Assembly (NCBI RefSeq): GCF_000718085.1
Contig: NZ_JOEC01000001.1
Coordinates: forward strand, 372,001-436,000
Reading direction: 5' to 3'
Length of the DNA: 64,000 bases
Source of the DNA: Mycetocola saprophilus
GTDB taxonomy: Bacteria; Actinomycetota; Actinomycetes; Actinomycetales; Microbacteriaceae
Part shown: piece by piece, positions 39,965 through 47,259 of the stretch
Numbering within the stretch: position 1 is the first letter of the stretch
Layout: each line of letters begins with the position of its first letter
The notes under the pieces: model-generated
What the model was told of the DNA's origin: nothing
The model's database searches: none
The model's input: only the letters and a program-made list of their open reading frames with translations
Made by a program: the position numbers and the translations under genes

Positions 39965-40043
39965 TTTAGTCGGCGGGCAGGGCACGGAGCAACGGGGCGT
40001 TGTGTGGTGCTTTAGTCGGCGGGCAGGGCACGGAGCAACGGGG
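39965..40043. repeat. 33-bp direct repeat duplicating the end of the anti-sigma gene
   Basis: A 33-base unit beginning TTTAGTCGGCGGGCAGGG is found exactly at 39965-39997 and 40011-40043, 46 bases apart. The second copy is the stop and last codons (LLRALPAD) of the anti-sigma gene on the minus strand; the first is the same text beyond the stop. The sequence before each copy is also similar (GGGGCGTTGT), indicating an imperfect tandem duplication. Confidence 0.9.
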
Positions 40044-40818
40044 TGGGGGAGTCGGCACGCCGCACATCCACCGAGCGAATGCCCTCGAGCGGGGTTGTGG
40101 TGGTCACCTCGACCCGCGCCGGACTGCCCGGCGCGGCGACCCAGGTGGATACCGCCCGCTCGCGTCCGGCATTGTCGGTGAGGACCAGGGAGTAGTCCAC
40201 CGGTTCGGCACCCGGGTAGGGGGCGGCGGGGGAGGTGTAGGAGCAGTCCATGGTGACCCGGGTGCCGCCGGGAATGTCGCGCAGGGTGACCACCGCGTCG
40301 ATCGGTGCCAGCTCGGGACCCACCTGGGCGAGGGTGAGGCGCTCGGTCTTGGGTTCCAGCACATGCAGGGTGAGTGGGATCGCGGCCCCGATGACCAGCA
40401 CGGCGGCGGCCGCGCCGATGGTCCAGCCGCGGGCACGCCGACTCAGGCGGCGTCGCCGCGGGCGCGGGAGGTGCGCGGCGGTTTCATCGCTTTCGGACGG
40501 GAACGGTTCCGCCGCGTTGGCCGGGACGTTCGCGTCGGAGGGCGACGCGGGATCCGAGCCGTCCCGGGACTGCGCCTGGCCCTCCCATGTCGGTTCCGTG
40601 GCCTCCGGCGCAGGCCGCTCGGCTTCGGGAATATCCCGCTCGTTTGGTGGGGTAATCCGCGAGAGCAGCCCGGGCAGCGAGGCGAGCTCGGACATGTGCA
40701 GGCGACACCGCTCGCACTCGGCCAGGTGCTCCTCATAGGCGCGACGATCGGCGGGTCCCAGGGCCCCCAGGACATAGGCGGCATCCCACTCGTCAAAGCG
40801 GGTGTGGATATCGGTCAC
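40012..40818 (-). CDS. zinc-finger membrane anti-sigma factor, RskA-like
   Basis: A 268-residue protein. The N-terminal ZAS-type domain carries H-x3-C-x2-C in EEHLAECERC (residues 30-39) and should hold the sigma factor. An acidic, Pro/Ala-rich linker and a basic RPRRRRLSRRARG stop lead to one membrane helix (about 130-155). An extracytoplasmic RskA-type beta domain of about 110 residues (LAQVGPELAP..., GTRVTMDCSYTS) follows. GTG 40818 overlaps the sigma factor stop (GTGA), giving coupled stoichiometric production. Confidence 0.9.
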   Translation of the reverse strand: MTDIHTRFDEWDAAYVLGALGPADRRAYEEHLAECERCRLHMSELASLPGLLSRITPPNERDIPEAERPAPEATEPTWEGQAQSRDGSDPASPSDANVPANAAEPFPSESDETAAHLPRPRRRRLSRRARGWTIGAAAAVLVIGAAIPLTLHVLEPKTERLTLAQVGPELAPIDAVVTLRDIPGGTRVTMDCSYTSPAAPYPGAEPVDYSLVLTDNAGRERAVSTWVAAPGSPARVEVTTTTPLEGIRSVDVRRADSPTPLLRALPAD

Positions 40819-41327
40819 CGGGTGACCCCCTTTTCCTGAAGCGCGAGTTTGAGCGCGCGCAGCCCGTAGTGCAGCCGCGACTTGACCGTCCCCTCGGGAA
40901 TCCCCAGGTCCGCCGAGAGCTCCACGGTGCTGCGGCCCCCAAAGTACGCCCCGGTGACCACCGCCCGATGCTCGCCGCTCAGGGCCGCCAGGGCCTCGGC
41001 CACCAGGATCGAATCAAACAGCGCGTCGGTGTGGTCATCGGAGCGGCCCTCGGGCATCTCCTCGACCCCGATTTCGTGGCGGCGACGGGCGCTGCGGGCC
41101 TCATCCACCACCAGGTTCCGGGCCACCGTATACAGCCAGGACCTGGCGCTTTCGGGATCATCGGACATGATCCGTGGATTGCGCCAGGCACGCAGCAGGG
41201 TTTCCTGCACGATGTCGTCGGCCCCGGCAAAATCACCGGTGAGGCGCACCACAAAACGCCAGATCACCGCGCCATGCTGCTCATGCAGCTCGCGCAGAAC
41301 CCGCGCCTCATGCTCGGTGGACATCAC
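40815..41327 (-). CDS. ECF (group IV) RNA polymerase sigma factor
   Basis: A 170-residue sigma factor with only regions 2 and 4. Region 2 includes ADDIVQETLLRAWRN and the -10-reading SARSWLYTVARNLVVDEAR; region 4 the helix-turn-helix LGIPEGTVKSRLHYGLRALK. Its cognate anti-sigma follows with a GTGA overlap. It is divergent from a flavin redox operon, and both starts have matching promoter elements (TGAACC-N16-CGTGT). Autoregulation and direct control of that operon are therefore likely. Confidence 0.93.
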   Translation of the reverse strand: MMSTEHEARVLRELHEQHGAVIWRFVVRLTGDFAGADDIVQETLLRAWRNPRIMSDDPESARSWLYTVARNLVVDEARSARRRHEIGVEEMPEGRSDDHTDALFDSILVAEALAALSGEHRAVVTGAYFGGRSTVELSADLGIPEGTVKSRLHYGLRALKLALQEKGVTR

Positions 41328-41353
41328 GCCCTCGTTTCCTTGCTCACTCCCGG

Positions 41354-41381
41354 TACACGATATTCGAGGCCCGATGGTTCA
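41354..41381 (-). promoter_or_regulatory. probable ECF-type promoter of the sigma/anti-sigma operon
   Basis: On the minus strand TGAACC (41381-41376) and CGTGTA (41359-41354) are separated by 16 bases, the AAC...CGT architecture of ECF promoters. The -10 element is 27 bases before the sigma factor ATG at 41327. It matches the plus-strand element at 41416-41443. Confidence 0.75.
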
Positions 41382-41415
41382 AAGCTGAGTTTTTTCTGTA
41401 GAAAACCCGATTGGC

Positions 41416-41443
41416 TGAACCGGGCCGCCGCCTACCTCGTGTG
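41416..41443 (+). promoter_or_regulatory. probable ECF-type promoter of the flavin redox operon
   Basis: TGAACC (41416-41421) and CGTGTG (41438-41443) with a 16-base spacer, 34 bases before the ATG of the FMN-binding lipoprotein. The same hexamers and spacer occur facing the sigma gene. The region between the two promoters holds GTTTTTTCTGTAGAAAAC (41389-41406), an AT-rich dyad-like centre. Confidence 0.75.
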
Positions 41444-41477
41444 ACCGTTGTCTCGAACCACCACGGAAGGTAACACC

Positions 41478-41966
41478 ATGGATATGCTTCGCACCCCCGG
41501 CACCGTTCGCACCAGCGCCCTGATTGGCATCGGTGTGGCCGCCATCGCCGCCCTCTCCGGCTGTGCAACCGGCGACCTCACCAAGAGCGGATCGGACGCG
41601 GGTTCCTCCACAAACCCCAGTGCCCCCGCCGCACAGTCTCAGGCCGACCCGGGCGCATCACCCGCGGCCGGCGCGCTGAAGGACGGCACCTATTCCGCCG
41701 ACGGCAACTACACCTCGCCCGGCGGGCAGGAATCGATCGGCGTCACGGTCACTCTCAAGGCCGGCGTGGTGAGCGATGTCAAGGTTGTCCCCAAGGGGCA
41801 AAACCCCACCGCCAAGCAGTTTGAATCCCAGTTCGCCTCGGGGATCGCCGGCCAGGTTGTGGGCAAGAACATCTCCGACCTCAACGTGGGCACCGTATCG
41901 GGCTCCTCGCTGACCGGGGAGGGCTTCAACGACGCCATCAACAACATCATCTCCCAGGCGAAGTAG
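41478..41966 (+). CDS. FMN-binding-domain lipoprotein
   Basis: A 162-residue exported protein. The signal peptide ends in the lipobox ALSGC (about residue 29), followed by a Ser/Ala/Pro linker. The C-terminal 90 residues are an FMN-binding domain (DGTYSADGNYTSPGGQESIGVTVTL...), ending VSGSSLTGEGFNDA. That is the place of the S/T-G-A-T/S-like motif whose Ser/Thr receives FMN covalently from ApbE. ATG 41478 follows GGAAGG. Its last base is shared with the GTG of apbE. It should sit outside the membrane as a one-flavin electron carrier. Confidence 0.88.
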   Translation: MDMLRTPGTVRTSALIGIGVAAIAALSGCATGDLTKSGSDAGSSTNPSAPAAQSQADPGASPAAGALKDGTYSADGNYTSPGGQESIGVTVTLKAGVVSDVKVVPKGQNPTAKQFESQFASGIAGQVVGKNISDLNVGTVSGSSLTGEGFNDAINNIISQAK

Positions 41967-42850
41967 TGGTTCCAGCTCCCGTCCCCTGGCGCTTTGAGGC
42001 GATCGGAACCGGCTGGCAGATCACCACGGAGAACGAGATTTCTTCCGGTGACCGGGCGGCCGTGTCCACGCTGATCGATGCGTATGACGCGGTGTATTCG
42101 CGGTTTCGCGCCGACTCCCTGGTGCGCGGTTTCGCGCAGACCGGCGGCAGCGTGGACCTCGGCGCGCACTGGCCGGACCTCTGGGACACCTATGTGGACC
42201 TCGAGGATCTGACCGCGGGCGCGGTCACCCCGCTGGTGGGGCGGGCGCTGGAAACCCTGGGCTATGACGCCGCCTACTCGCTGATCCCCTCGGGAATCCC
42301 CGGGCCGGTCCCGGCGCTCGGCGACACCCTGCGCAGTGTGGGAACGGTCCTCACCGCGACCGAACCGGTGCTGCTGGATGTGGGGGCAGTGGGCAAGGGT
42401 CAGCTGGTGGATCTGGTAGTTGGGTTGCTGATGGCGCGCGGATACACGGCCCTCACCGTGGACGCCGGCGGCGATATTCGCCATGCCGGATCCTCCGGAC
42501 TCCGGGTCGCGCTGGAACACCCCTTTGATCGGACCCGGGCGATCGGCGTGATCGAACTCGCCGGCTCCGGCCCGCGCGGCGCGATCGCCGGATCGGCCAC
42601 CAACCGCCGCGCCTGGGGCGAGGGCCTGCACCACGTATTGGATGGCCGCACCGGGAAACCGGTGGATTCGATTGTGGCCACCTGGGCGATCGGGGAGTCG
42701 GCGCTGATCGCCGATGCCGCCGCGACCGCCCTGTTTTTTGCCGGACCCGAGGCCGTGGCGACGCGGCTGGATGTCGACTGGGTTCGGATGTTTACAAATG
42801 GACGCGTGGAGTATTCTCGTACGCTTCCCGGAGAGGTTTTTATCGCATGA
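41966..42850 (+). CDS. apbE: FAD:protein FMN transferase
   Basis: A 294-residue ApbE-family enzyme that attaches FMN to Ser/Thr of target proteins using FAD and Mg2+. Motifs are GTGWQI near the start, DVGAVGKGQLVDLV (the usual KG-x3-D region), DAGGDIRHAG, and HHVLDGRTGKPVD. The Asp/Thr metal site is in ADAAATALF. No lipobox or signal peptide is evident, so it may act on the cytoplasmic side before export, unlike many secreted ApbE proteins. GTG 41966 overlaps the lipoprotein stop; its stop overlaps the next gene. Confidence 0.92.
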   Translation: MVPAPVPWRFEAIGTGWQITTENEISSGDRAAVSTLIDAYDAVYSRFRADSLVRGFAQTGGSVDLGAHWPDLWDTYVDLEDLTAGAVTPLVGRALETLGYDAAYSLIPSGIPGPVPALGDTLRSVGTVLTATEPVLLDVGAVGKGQLVDLVVGLLMARGYTALTVDAGGDIRHAGSSGLRVALEHPFDRTRAIGVIELAGSGPRGAIAGSATNRRAWGEGLHHVLDGRTGKPVDSIVATWAIGESALIADAAATALFFAGPEAVATRLDVDWVRMFTNGRVEYSRTLPGEVFIA

Positions 42851-44352
42851 GTGCCCGACTGGACCGCCTGCTTGGTCGTGTGACAATGTATCGCCTGGTG
42901 CTGCTGGTGTTGCTGGCGCTCTGGGTGATCGCGGCCGTGCTCTCGCTGGCCGGAGTGCTCGCGTTCCCGATCCTTGGACTCGTGTTGAGCCTCGTGGTCG
43001 CGGTGGTGGTCGGCTGGGTTTCCAATCGAGTCTTCGCGCTGATCTGGCGGGTCGCCCCGCACGGCGAGTCCTCGCTGGTGACCGCGCTGATCCTGGTGTT
43101 TTTGTTTTTCCCGCTGCCAACCATCGAGAGTCAGGGAATGCTGGCGCTCGCCGTGGCCGCGGCGAACCTGAGTAAGTATCTGCTGGCCTGGCGTGGTCGC
43201 CATGTCTTCAACCCGGTAGCCGCCGGGGCGATGGTGGTCGCGGCCACCGGGATCGGCGGGGCCGTGTGGTGGATCGCGACCCCGGCGCTGTTTATCCCGC
43301 TGATCCTCGGCGCGGCCCTGGTACTGCACCGGGCGCGAGCCTGGGATATCGCGCTGCCGGTGATCGTGATCGGGGTGGTGGGCACGCTACTCAAGCTGGT
43401 GTCCACCGGCGCGGATCCGCTGGGCGCCGGATGGACCGCCCTGGCCTCCTACCCCTACCTCTTCCTCGGGGCATTCATGATGAGTGAGCCGCTGACGGCA
43501 CCGCCGCGGCGCCGCTGGCGGATGCTGGTGAGCGCCATCGTCGGGCTGGTATCGCTGATCCCGCTGAATCTGGGTGTGCTGGCGATGTCGCCGGAACTCG
43601 CGCTGCTGGTGGGGAACGCGGTCGCGTTCGGGTTTGGTCCGCGCTCGCGTGTGCGGCTGACCCTGGAGGCCCGCGCGGAGCATGCGGGTGGCATCGCCGA
43701 TCTGTCCTTCGTGCCCGAGCGCCCGCTACGCCTGCGCCCCGGCCAGTATCTGGAACTCTCGATCCCGCATCGGGGTGCCGACGGGCGCGGCCTGCGCCGG
43801 GTATTCAGCGTGGCCTCGGCACCGGGATCCTCCGCGGTGCGCATCATCACGCGGGTCGAGGAGCGGGCCAGCTCGTTCAAGCAGGCGCTGCTCGCCCTGG
43901 AACCCGGAACCCACGTGGCCGTGAGCGCCGTGGGTGGCGATTTCACCGTGCGCGGAGGTGCCGACGAACTGTGGCTGGCCAACGGCGTGGGGCTCACTCC
44001 GTTCCTGGCCGCGGCGGATGCGCGCACCGCGCGTCCGGCATCGGGACCCACGCTGATCTGGGCGCTGCGGGCGGGGGAGGACCCGGTTTGGGCCGAACCC
44101 GTGCTGCGTCGCGGCGGCGTTCGGGTGCTGATCGTGGGGCCGGAATCCCTGGGTCTCGACGGCGCTCTGCCCGAGGGCTGGCTGTACGCGGGCACCCGGG
44201 TGGATGAGCACGCCCTGGCGATCGCCCGCCCGGCCGGCCGCCCCACCCACGCGTATGTGGCGGGCTCTCCGGCGTTTGTAGTGTCGGCCTCGCGGGCGGC
44301 CCGCTCGCATGGTGTGCACCGGGTCCGCACCGATCGGTTCATCGGCTACTAG
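42847..44352 (+). CDS. NqrB/RnfD-like membrane domain fused to FNR-type flavin reductase
   Basis: A 501-residue two-part protein. Residues 1-260 form about ten helices resembling NqrB/RnfD and related proteins, with NLSKYLLAWRGRHVFNPVA and the family-typical FMMSEPLTAPP (Thr in the position linked to flavin attachment in this fold). Residues about 275-500 are a ferredoxin-NADP reductase-type module: FAD motif RRVFSVAS, a GTHVAVSAVGGDF loop, and the NAD(P) site LANGVGLTPFLAA. It should move electrons from cytoplasmic NAD(P)H across the membrane to the flavin lipoprotein. ATG 42847 overlaps apbE (ATGA). Confidence 0.85.
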   Translation: MSARLDRLLGRVTMYRLVLLVLLALWVIAAVLSLAGVLAFPILGLVLSLVVAVVVGWVSNRVFALIWRVAPHGESSLVTALILVFLFFPLPTIESQGMLALAVAAANLSKYLLAWRGRHVFNPVAAGAMVVAATGIGGAVWWIATPALFIPLILGAALVLHRARAWDIALPVIVIGVVGTLLKLVSTGADPLGAGWTALASYPYLFLGAFMMSEPLTAPPRRRWRMLVSAIVGLVSLIPLNLGVLAMSPELALLVGNAVAFGFGPRSRVRLTLEARAEHAGGIADLSFVPERPLRLRPGQYLELSIPHRGADGRGLRRVFSVASAPGSSAVRIITRVEERASSFKQALLALEPGTHVAVSAVGGDFTVRGGADELWLANGVGLTPFLAAADARTARPASGPTLIWALRAGEDPVWAEPVLRRGGVRVLIVGPESLGLDGALPEGWLYAGTRVDEHALAIARPAGRPTHAYVAGSPAFVVSASRAARSHGVHRVRTDRFIGY

Positions 44353-46566: not shown

Positions 46567-47259
46567 ATGAGCGACATCAGTACCACCGAACGCGTCCGCC
46601 TCGCCATCTATCGTCACTTCGCCCGGACAGGTCAGGCCAGCACCCCGGATTCGGTGGCCGAACGGTTGAATATCGGTCCCGAGGAGGCCGATGCGGCCTT
46701 CGACGCGCTCATCCTGGACCGACACATCGCCGTATCGCCGGAGGGGGAGATCGTGTTGGCGCATCCGTTCGCCACCCGAAACTTCGGATTCTCGGTGATG
46801 GGGGAGCGGGTGCTGTGGTGGGGAGGCTGTGCCTGGGACTCGTTTGCGATCCCGCACCTGGTGCCCGAGGAGCCCGCGGTGGTGGTGGCCACCACGTGTC
46901 CGCACTGTGACGCCGCACACTCCTGGACGGTCACGCGGGACGCGGCCCCCGAGGGGGACCAGGTGGTGCACTTCCTGATGCCGATGGGGCGGGTGTGGGA
47001 CGACGTGATTCACGCGTGCGCAAACCAGCGGATCTTCTGTTCTGTCGACTGCGTCGAGGACTGGGCTCGCGCATCCGGCCACGAGGTCGGAGCGATCTTT
47101 GACCTGCGGACCCTCTGGAATCTGTCCGCGCAGTGGTACGCCGGCCGCCTGGACCCGGGGTATGTGCGTCGGGAGCCGCTGGTGGCCGCCGAGTACTTCG
47201 CCGGTGTCGGGCTGACCGGCCCATTCTGGGGGACTCCCGCCCTCACAGCAAACCCCTAG
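46567..47259 (+). CDS. alkylmercury lyase (MerB) family protein
   Basis: A 230-residue protein with an N-terminal winged-helix-like region (1-65) and a MerB-type catalytic half. The three catalytic positions of MerB have clear counterparts: Cys88 and Asp91 in GGCAWDSFAIP, and Cys158 in RIFCSVDCVEDW. MerB uses these to protonolyse carbon-mercury bonds. Additional Cys pairs (CPHC at 111-114, Cys151, Cys162) are unusual. No merA, merT or MerR-type gene is in the window, so the true substrate may be another organometal or thiol-reactive compound. The divergent MarR probably regulates it. Confidence 0.82.
   Translation: MSDISTTERVRLAIYRHFARTGQASTPDSVAERLNIGPEEADAAFDALILDRHIAVSPEGEIVLAHPFATRNFGFSVMGERVLWWGGCAWDSFAIPHLVPEEPAVVVATTCPHCDAAHSWTVTRDAAPEGDQVVHFLMPMGRVWDDVIHACANQRIFCSVDCVEDWARASGHEVGAIFDLRTLWNLSAQWYAGRLDPGYVRREPLVAAEYFAGVGLTGPFWGTPALTANP

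What the first reader, a model, noticed from the sequence alone, without database searches (positions are those of the whole stretch)
40012..44352. ECF sigma/anti-sigma pair wired to a compact flavin trans-membrane electron-transfer module
A sigma factor and RskA-like anti-sigma are divergent from an FMN-binding lipoprotein, ApbE and an NqrB-like/FNR fusion. All three redox genes overlap, so they act together. Together they give a full route: NAD(P)H oxidation, membrane flavin, extracytoplasmic covalent FMN carrier. ApbE-dependent extracellular electron transfer is known in Gram-positives, but this minimal three-gene form under its own ECF switch in an actinobacterium looks uncharacterised to me.
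Basis: partly seen in the sequence, partly recalled or inferred. Interest (0 to 1): 0.8.

Follow-up and report, generated by a model that had tools for sequence, protein, structure and literature searches.

The report
SigL-type switch for flavin electron export
A five-gene block in a Mycetocola bacterium pairs a stress-type transcription switch with a small membrane machine predicted to move electrons from NAD(P)H to a flavin protein outside the cell; the machine was already known from genome surveys, but its control by this switch, seen as a shared promoter in many relatives, appears new.

Summary
The redox trio (FMN-binding lipoprotein, ApbE, NqrB/RnfD-FNR fusion) is an already described 'NQR/RNF-like' system (Meheust 2021; 2024 preprint), so it is not new. 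The regulators are SigL/RslA-type, not RskA-type. What looks new is the wiring. The 150-bp divergent region holds two outward TGAACC-N16-CGTGT promoters; the genome's other four exact copies lie inside predicted ORFs. A TGAAC-N17-CGT site precedes the lipoprotein gene in 10 of 11 loci with a nearby sigma pair and in 17 of 71 without one (shuffle mean 0.29, max 3). Among unlinked family loci it tracks the anti-sigma's presence elsewhere in the genome (13/21 vs 1/30); outside the family 3/5 vs 0/15, weaker if faint matches count (3/10 vs 0/10). Linkage needs three changes on the fusion tree, and a same-genus genome has a clean empty site lacking all five genes. Related SigL pairs stand by Rieske or Lipoprotein_15 lipoproteins, suggesting an extracytoplasmic redox regulon. 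Two oddities: ApbE lacks a signal peptide though its presumed substrate is exported, and one outer anti-sigma cysteine is kept in 128 of 128 aligned rows. No biochemistry was possible.

The parts
40012..40818 (-). RslA-type membrane anti-sigma factor: cytosolic zinc-binding HxxxCxxC domain, one hydrophobic membrane segment (about residues 129-147), extracytoplasmic domain with a single cysteine (Cys192)
   Evidence: zf-HC2 29.8 bits; PDB 3hug_B E 4e-12; hydropathy; Cys192 in 128 of 128 aligned rows (125 distinct)
40243..40245 (-). codon of the invariant extracytoplasmic Cys192 of the anti-sigma (candidate sensor; inference)
40815..41327 (-). SigL-type ECF sigma factor
   Evidence: NF007227 218.4 bits over cut-off 202; PDB 6dv9_F SigL 193.8 bits
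41355..41381 (-). predicted autoregulatory promoter of the sigma gene, TGAACC-N16-CGTGT
   Evidence: TGAAC-N17-CGT upstream of 25 of 30 related sigma genes, this one and other linked ones included
41416..41442 (+). predicted promoter of the redox operon, TGAACC-N16-CGTGT
   Evidence: TGAAC-N17-CGT in 10 of 11 linked and 17 of 71 unlinked loci
41478..41966 (+). FMN-binding lipoprotein (NqrC/RnfG-like); candidate flavinylation site SGSS at 41898-41909, acceptor probably Ser144
41966..42850 (+). ApbE, FAD:protein FMN transferase, without a signal peptide
   Evidence: PF02424 116.8 bits; no in-frame ATG/GTG/TTG in the 47 open codons upstream and no N-terminal hydrophobic segment
42847..44352 (+). 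fusion of an NqrB/RnfD-like membrane domain (residues about 3-267) and an FNR/NqrF-like FAD/NAD(P)H domain (about 263-500)

Best explanation
The block is a self-contained inducible electron-export unit. A SigL-type ECF sigma factor, held by a membrane RslA-type anti-sigma factor, drives its own gene and, from a divergent promoter of the same type, an operon for an NQR/RNF-like module: the NqrB/RnfD-FNR fusion oxidises NAD(P)H inside, passes electrons across the membrane through FAD and a probably non-covalent membrane flavin, and reduces a lipoprotein whose FMN is attached by ApbE. Shown by sequence: the genes, predicted folds, promoter-like sites, their conservation, and presence or absence of the five genes as a block. 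Inferred from known families: sigma-promoter recognition, electron route and direction, flavinylation of Ser144. Further inference: the anti-sigma releases the sigma on an oxidising signal, at its zinc thiols (as shown for M. tuberculosis RslA) and/or at the single outer cysteine, so envelope oxidation would turn on reducing power towards the envelope. The final electron acceptor is unknown.
For: Divergent TGAACC-N16-CGTGT pair, 2 in the window against 0.09 expected, 0 of 100 shuffles with two; the other 4 exact matches in the genome lie inside predicted ORFs. TGAAC-N17-CGT before the lipoprotein in 10 of 11 linked loci; in the eleventh, L071, it precedes a Lipoprotein_15-type gene upstream of the lipoprotein gene. 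17 of 71 unlinked loci against 0-2 at other spacings and 0 on the opposite strand at that spacing; shuffle mean 0.29, max 3 of 300. Such a site at 25 of 30 related sigma genes. Motif tracks anti-sigma presence: 13/21 vs 1/30 (cut-off E 1e-20; 14/26 vs 0/25 at 1e-6). Linkage needs three changes on the fusion tree. Same five-gene arrangement in L209. Empty site in G003. Folds. Redox sensitivity of RslA: PMC2877774 (abstract and section 10).
Against: Physical linkage is a minority state (11 of 154 family genomes; a lower bound because both listings are truncated). 54 of 71 unlinked loci lack the exact motif, including 8 of 21 whose genome has the anti-sigma, so many relatives may regulate the module otherwise. 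Outside the family the tracking depends on the cut-off: 3/5 vs 0/15 at E 1e-20 (p 0.009) but 3/10 vs 0/10 at 1e-6 (p 0.21). With the tree taken into account there are only 4 independent pairs (about 3 agree, hardly any against; median p 0.25). Well-supported branches force only 2 of the 3 changes of linkage. The anti-sigma search may also find paralogues; a second match exists in G000. The flavinylation motif departs from the textbook one, and ApbE has no signal peptide. No expression or biochemical data.
Confidence: 0.7

Rival explanations
1. The sigma/anti-sigma pair is a neighbour by chance: the redox trio is an ordinary NQR/RNF-like cluster with other promoters, and the pair controls other genes.
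For: 72 of the 83 fusion loci whose surroundings were read (some cut by contig ends) show no adjacent SigL-type pair; four of them (L043, L084, L106, L107) have only a more distant ECF-like ORF nearby. Such pairs are common in the family (anti-sigma matches in 162 of 398 genomes).
Against: Divergent matched promoters, their conservation at one exact spacing in linked and unlinked loci, tracking of the anti-sigma within the family, linkage in separate places on the tree, block presence/absence.
Confidence: 0.1
2. The promoter is real, but the physiological role is iron acquisition or ferric reduction, induced by metal limitation, rather than a response to envelope oxidation.
For: Six NQR/RNF-like clusters in the published survey contain a VIT1 iron transporter (PMC8238504 section 13); flavin electron export can reduce ferric iron (recalled for other systems).
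Against: No iron transporter was recognised among the five neighbouring genes put through Pfam (M20 peptidase, FUSC, DUF308, CGNR regulator, SLAC1/TehA). Other genes beside related SigL pairs are Rieske/DUF2231 and Lipoprotein_15 types, which do not point to iron uptake.
Confidence: 0.2
3. The module supplies electrons to an envelope repair or terminal reductase encoded elsewhere (for example thiol or methionine sulfoxide repair), with the lipoprotein as the shuttle.
For: The lipoprotein is the only wholly extracytoplasmic protein of the block; an RslA-type redox-responsive regulator would suit an oxidative-damage response (PMC2877774).
Against: No reductase partner is encoded in the block; partner families elsewhere in the genome were not searched.
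Confidence: 0.3

Closest known systems
NQR/RNF-like flavinylation system (Meheust et al. 2021, PMC8238504; modelled further in PMC10979944, 2024)
   Same: NqrB/RnfD-like membrane domain fused to an NAD-binding domain, with an NqrC/RnfG-like FMN-binding partner and ApbE; loss of the covalent flavin site of NqrB/RnfD (reported in the preprint).
   Different: A SigL/RslA regulator and its promoter are not in either text as held ('sigma' occurs 0 times in both). The window's own fusion falls under the Pfam thresholds. ApbE has no signal peptide; the acceptor motif is GSS.
M. tuberculosis SigL-RslA
   Same: Sigma factor 193.8 bits to SigL over residues 6-170; anti-sigma cytosolic domain with HxxxCxxC; CG followed by TG at the -10 element, as reported for SigL promoters (PMC6372665, passages).
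   Different: The M. tuberculosis regulon is reported as cell-wall and polyketide genes (PMC2877774 abstract); here the apparent target is an electron-transfer operon. Of the two -10-contacting SigL residues named, Asp60 is kept and His54 is Asn (counted on the alignment).
Listeria-type flavin extracellular electron transfer (PplA, FmnB, Ndh2, EetA/B; recalled)
   Same: FMN attached by an ApbE-type enzyme to a lipoprotein outside the membrane of a Gram-positive.
   Different: No separate NADH dehydrogenase, quinone synthesis or Eet proteins in the block; one fusion protein spans the membrane.
NQR and RNF complexes
   Same: Fold of the NqrB/RnfD and NqrF domains.
   Different: The block has no counterpart of NqrA, D, E / RnfA, B, C, E; one-way electron flow expected (as proposed in PMC8238504).

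Membership tests
[quoted passage not shown]
NQR/RNF-like flavinylation system | C-terminal NAD-binding domain (PF00175) | tested here: met
NQR/RNF-like flavinylation system | Same cluster holds an ApbE or FMN-binding protein with signal peptide or lipidation site | tested here: met
   Lipobox LSGC in the FMN-binding protein (by motif, no SignalP available); ApbE 116.8 bits.
NQR/RNF-like flavinylation system | Covalent FMN on the extracytoplasmic protein | not testable with these tools
   Candidate acceptor Ser in GSS, present in 78 of 80 rows.
Canonical ApbE substrate | D-x-x-[S/T]-G-A-[S/T] motif (PMC12052999 section 8) | tested here: not met
   Window reads G-T-V-S-G-S-S; 1 of 80 rows (L082) has the canonical motif and 25 of 80 keep an Asp at its first place. 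So it is filed as a variant site, not a canonical one.
SigL/RslA pair | Sigma matches the SigL-type model over its cut-off | tested here: met
   NF007227 218.4 against 202 (that this model stands for SigL is recalled); PDB SigL 193.8 bits.
SigL/RslA pair | Adjacent membrane anti-sigma with zinc motif HxxxCxxC | tested here: met
   HLAECERC; 3hug_B E 4e-12 (that 3hug is the SigL/RslA complex is recalled, chain A matches SigL); one hydrophobic segment.
SigL/RslA pair | Autoregulated TGAAC/CGT-type promoter | tested here: met
   Sequence level only.
SigL/RslA pair | Anti-sigma binds the sigma and releases it on oxidation | not testable with these tools
   Reported for M. tuberculosis RslA (PMC2877774 abstract).
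   Only zf-HC2 above cut-off, no RskA Pfam hit at E up to 0.1.
Numbered ECF group of the published ECF classification | Match to a group model | not tested
   Models not available; the classification paper is not held.

The most novel reading that the evidence does not exclude
SigL-type sigma factors of Micrococcales command a regulon for extracytoplasmic electron transfer with swappable output (flavin module, Rieske/DUF2231, Lipoprotein_15). The sensor is the single invariant outer cysteine of the anti-sigma, so envelope oxidation directly opens an NAD(P)H-fed electron exit. In this module FMN is attached in the cytosol, before export, by an ApbE that has no signal peptide.
Probability: 0.25. 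Interest if true: 0.78.

Novelty: new variant of a known kind. Interest (0 to 1): 0.55.

Why it matters
Published surveys found many flavin-based electron exits; the two I could consult do not mention a sigma factor. Here a defined sigma factor, anti-sigma and promoter sequence make the question of when cells open such an exit testable in ordinary actinobacteria, and may tie the flavin route to other envelope redox lipoproteins through one promoter. The outer cysteine that outlasts the zinc site gives a concrete candidate sensor, and the ApbE without a signal peptide raises the question of where extracytoplasmic flavoproteins receive their FMN in Gram-positives.

Tried and rejected
RskA identity of the anti-sigma: rejected. 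Covalent FMN on the NqrB/RnfD-like domain: no SGAT-type motif seen in A1; the 2024 preprint reports loss of the site for the family. First impression that the sigma linkage is confined to Mycetocola (whose crude gene picker dropped ORFs): overturned by scanning all ORFs. ApbE-less modules as ApbE-independent: not supported, since all five genomes concerned (G019, G099, G160, G209, G253) have PF02424 matches elsewhere. Phylogenetically independent test of motif against anti-sigma: underpowered. A careful tree did not finish; the quick tree was used, without L094, whose fusion did not pass the filter. Plain Foldseek showed flavohaemoglobin, NADPH oxidase, FNR and NqrF-type chains in the 50 rows printed; VIA-align 2 then showed RnfD/NqrB. 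A model of the N-terminal domain alone was made but not searched with. Literature: searches for a link between ECF factors and flavinylation or these lipoproteins gave 3, 14, 0, 0 and 0 papers, none on point as judged from the listings; most subscription papers are not in the library.
Full report
OBSERVATION. The five genes are present at 40012-44352 as described. Sigma and anti-sigma overlap by 4 nt, lipoprotein and ApbE by 1 nt, ApbE and fusion by 4 nt. The genome is probably a Mycetocola: the only named relative returned is M. lacteus JCM 11654, 95% identical over the fusion protein, and the same-genus genome G001 has a contig of the same length as that record's. The lipoprotein most likely starts at ATG 41478.

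THE REGULATORS. The sigma factor is SigL-type (NF007227 218.4 over 202; PDB SigL 193.8 bits). The anti-sigma is RslA-type (3hug_B E 4e-12 over residues 7-63; HLAECERC) with one hydrophobic membrane segment, not RskA. RslA of M. tuberculosis loses zinc and affinity for SigL on oxidation (PMC2877774, abstract and section 10).

PROMOTERS. The 150-bp divergent region holds TGAACC-N16-CGTGT twice, facing outward: 41355-41381 (-) and 41416-41442 (+), with 0.09 expected per window and 0 of 100 shuffles holding two. The genome has six exact matches (3+3; reversed-pattern control 1+0); the other four lie inside predicted ORFs. Surroundings of 83 fusion loci were read (window, L035-L114, L209, L210). 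Eleven have the sigma/anti-sigma pair nearby: window, L035, L038, L042, L071, L095, L097, L098, L100 (the contig ends inside the anti-sigma, so its sigma gene is not seen), L209, L210. Four others (L043, L084, L106, L107) have only a more distant ECF-like ORF. Ten of the 11 have TGAAC-N17-CGT in the 300 nt examined upstream of the lipoprotein. In L071 a matching site precedes a Lipoprotein_15-type gene that lies upstream of the lipoprotein gene. Of 71 unlinked loci, 17 have it at exactly this spacing, against 0-2 at each other spacing from 11 to 24 and 0 on the opposite strand at this spacing; dinucleotide shuffles give mean 0.29, maximum 3 in 300. L099 had no detected lipoprotein and was not counted.

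TRANS CONTROL. An anti-sigma profile search over the 398 family genomes found matches in 162 (E up to 1e-6; seven candidates scored per genome). Comparing places and the read surroundings gives linkage in at least 11 of 154 fusion genomes, in four genera (both lists are truncated). For unlinked family loci the motif is present in 13 of 21 whose genome has the anti-sigma at E below 1e-20 and in 1 of 30 without (Fisher p 4.8e-6); counting matches down to 1e-6 as present it is 14 of 26 against 0 of 25 (p 1.1e-5). For the 20 order/class loci it is 3 of 5 against 0 of 15 at 1e-20 (p 0.009), but 3 of 10 against 0 of 10 if the five faint matches count (p 0.21). Rows are related by descent: a test on independent pairs in the family has only 4 pairs, about 3 agreeing and hardly any against (median p 0.25). 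The correlation is suggestive, not proven. Of the 30 best related sigma genes (linked ones included), 25 carry the site 41-119 nt before the assumed start, and 11 of 30 regions carry one on the other strand too; the five sigma genes found outside the family also carry one.

EVOLUTION. On a quick maximum-likelihood tree of 82 fusions (SH-aLRT only), seven linked loci including the window form one clade (support 99), and the other four sit as two pairs elsewhere; the label needs three changes, of which well-supported branches force two. The same-genus genome G003 has M20 peptidase, FUSC, DUF308, then 70 bp, then CGNR and TehA, with all five genes missing between DUF308 and CGNR (L234). Neither G003 nor G002 has a match for the fusion, ApbE or this anti-sigma. 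The five genes thus behave as one unit in this genus. In five linked loci (L042, L095, L097, L098, L100) no apbE was found between lipoprotein and fusion, but all five genomes have ApbE matches elsewhere.

WIDER REGULON. At related sigma loci (50 loci, 46 genomes) Lipoprotein_15-like genes were found near the sigma in 10 genomes (divergent from it in 8, by my reading of the strands) and Rieske-like genes in 5 (all divergent, 4 with a DUF2231-like gene). These were found by phmmer with two seeds for each type; 30 of the loci had only 1.5 kb flanks. Many loci showed neither. Pfam confirms Rieske (L220, L228, L214), DUF2231 (L220) and Lipoprotein_15 (L218) in representatives; the DUF2231-like gene of L214 had no Pfam hit.

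TWO ODDITIES. (1) ApbE begins 9 residues before the conserved FEAIGTGW, has no upstream in-frame ATG/GTG/TTG in its 47-codon open stretch and no N-terminal hydrophobic segment. In the 55 loci where the motif was located (56 less one artefact, L060; it was not located in 19 others) there are 3-48 residues between the lipoprotein's stop and the motif and no strongly hydrophobic stretch (highest 15-residue mean 1.17). A review describes ApbE as typically membrane-anchored and periplasmic, installing FMN on secreted targets, with a cytosolic Klebsiella ApbE serving a soluble fumarate reductase (PMC12052999, passages). So the FMN may be attached before export, or ApbE reaches the outside unconventionally. 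(2) The anti-sigma has one conserved extracytoplasmic cysteine, Cys192, in 128 of 128 aligned rows (8 of A2 plus the best 120 of 2093 hits; 125 distinct), while the zinc triad is complete in 122; in the locus set it is present in 46 of 47 rows, the other being misaligned. The L038 and L210 anti-sigmas have lost the zinc site but keep Cys192. This makes Cys192 a candidate sensor.

FLAVINYLATION SITE. The published motif is D-x-x-[S/T]-G-A-[S/T], with Asp replaceable at small cost and Thr preferred over Ser (PMC12052999 section 8, passages). Here it is G-T-V-S-G-S-S; G-S-S is present in 78 of 80 rows (not in L075 and the canonical L082), and 25 of 80 keep an Asp at the first place. Flavinylation is plausible but unproven.

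VERDICT. A known kind of flavin electron-export module with a SigL/RslA control that I did not find described in the texts I could search, supported by promoter conservation beyond physical linkage.

Noticed in passing
L220:3001-4601, L228:3899-5004, L214:5735-7439, L223:5825-7538, L205: SigL-type sigma genes divergent from a Rieske-type lipoprotein gene, in four of the five with a DUF2231-like gene; the first four loci have TGAAC-N17-CGT sites on both strands. Looks like an envelope redox pair.
   Followed up: partly
L218:3802-4302, L071:9121-9648, L187, L188, L191, L227: Lipoprotein_15-type secreted lipoproteins (PF03640 confirmed for L218) next to the same kind of sigma gene; in L071 the gene stands upstream of the flavin genes, with the site in front of it.
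   Followed up: partly
window 41966-42850 and homologous loci: ApbE enzymes of this module lack a signal peptide although the presumed substrate is an exported lipoprotein.
   Followed up: partly
L038:4753-5460, L210 anti-sigma, P0202, P0220, P0235, P0241: Anti-sigma relatives that have lost all or most of the zinc motif HxxxCxxC but keep the single extracytoplasmic cysteine.
   Followed up: partly
L096 (G099), L099 (G209): Genomes with a second fusion copy of a different clade, without the sigma linkage and next to its own apbE.
   Followed up: no
window 46567-47259 (+): Protein weakly like alkylmercury lyase MerB (23.8 bits, cut-off 193).
   Followed up: no
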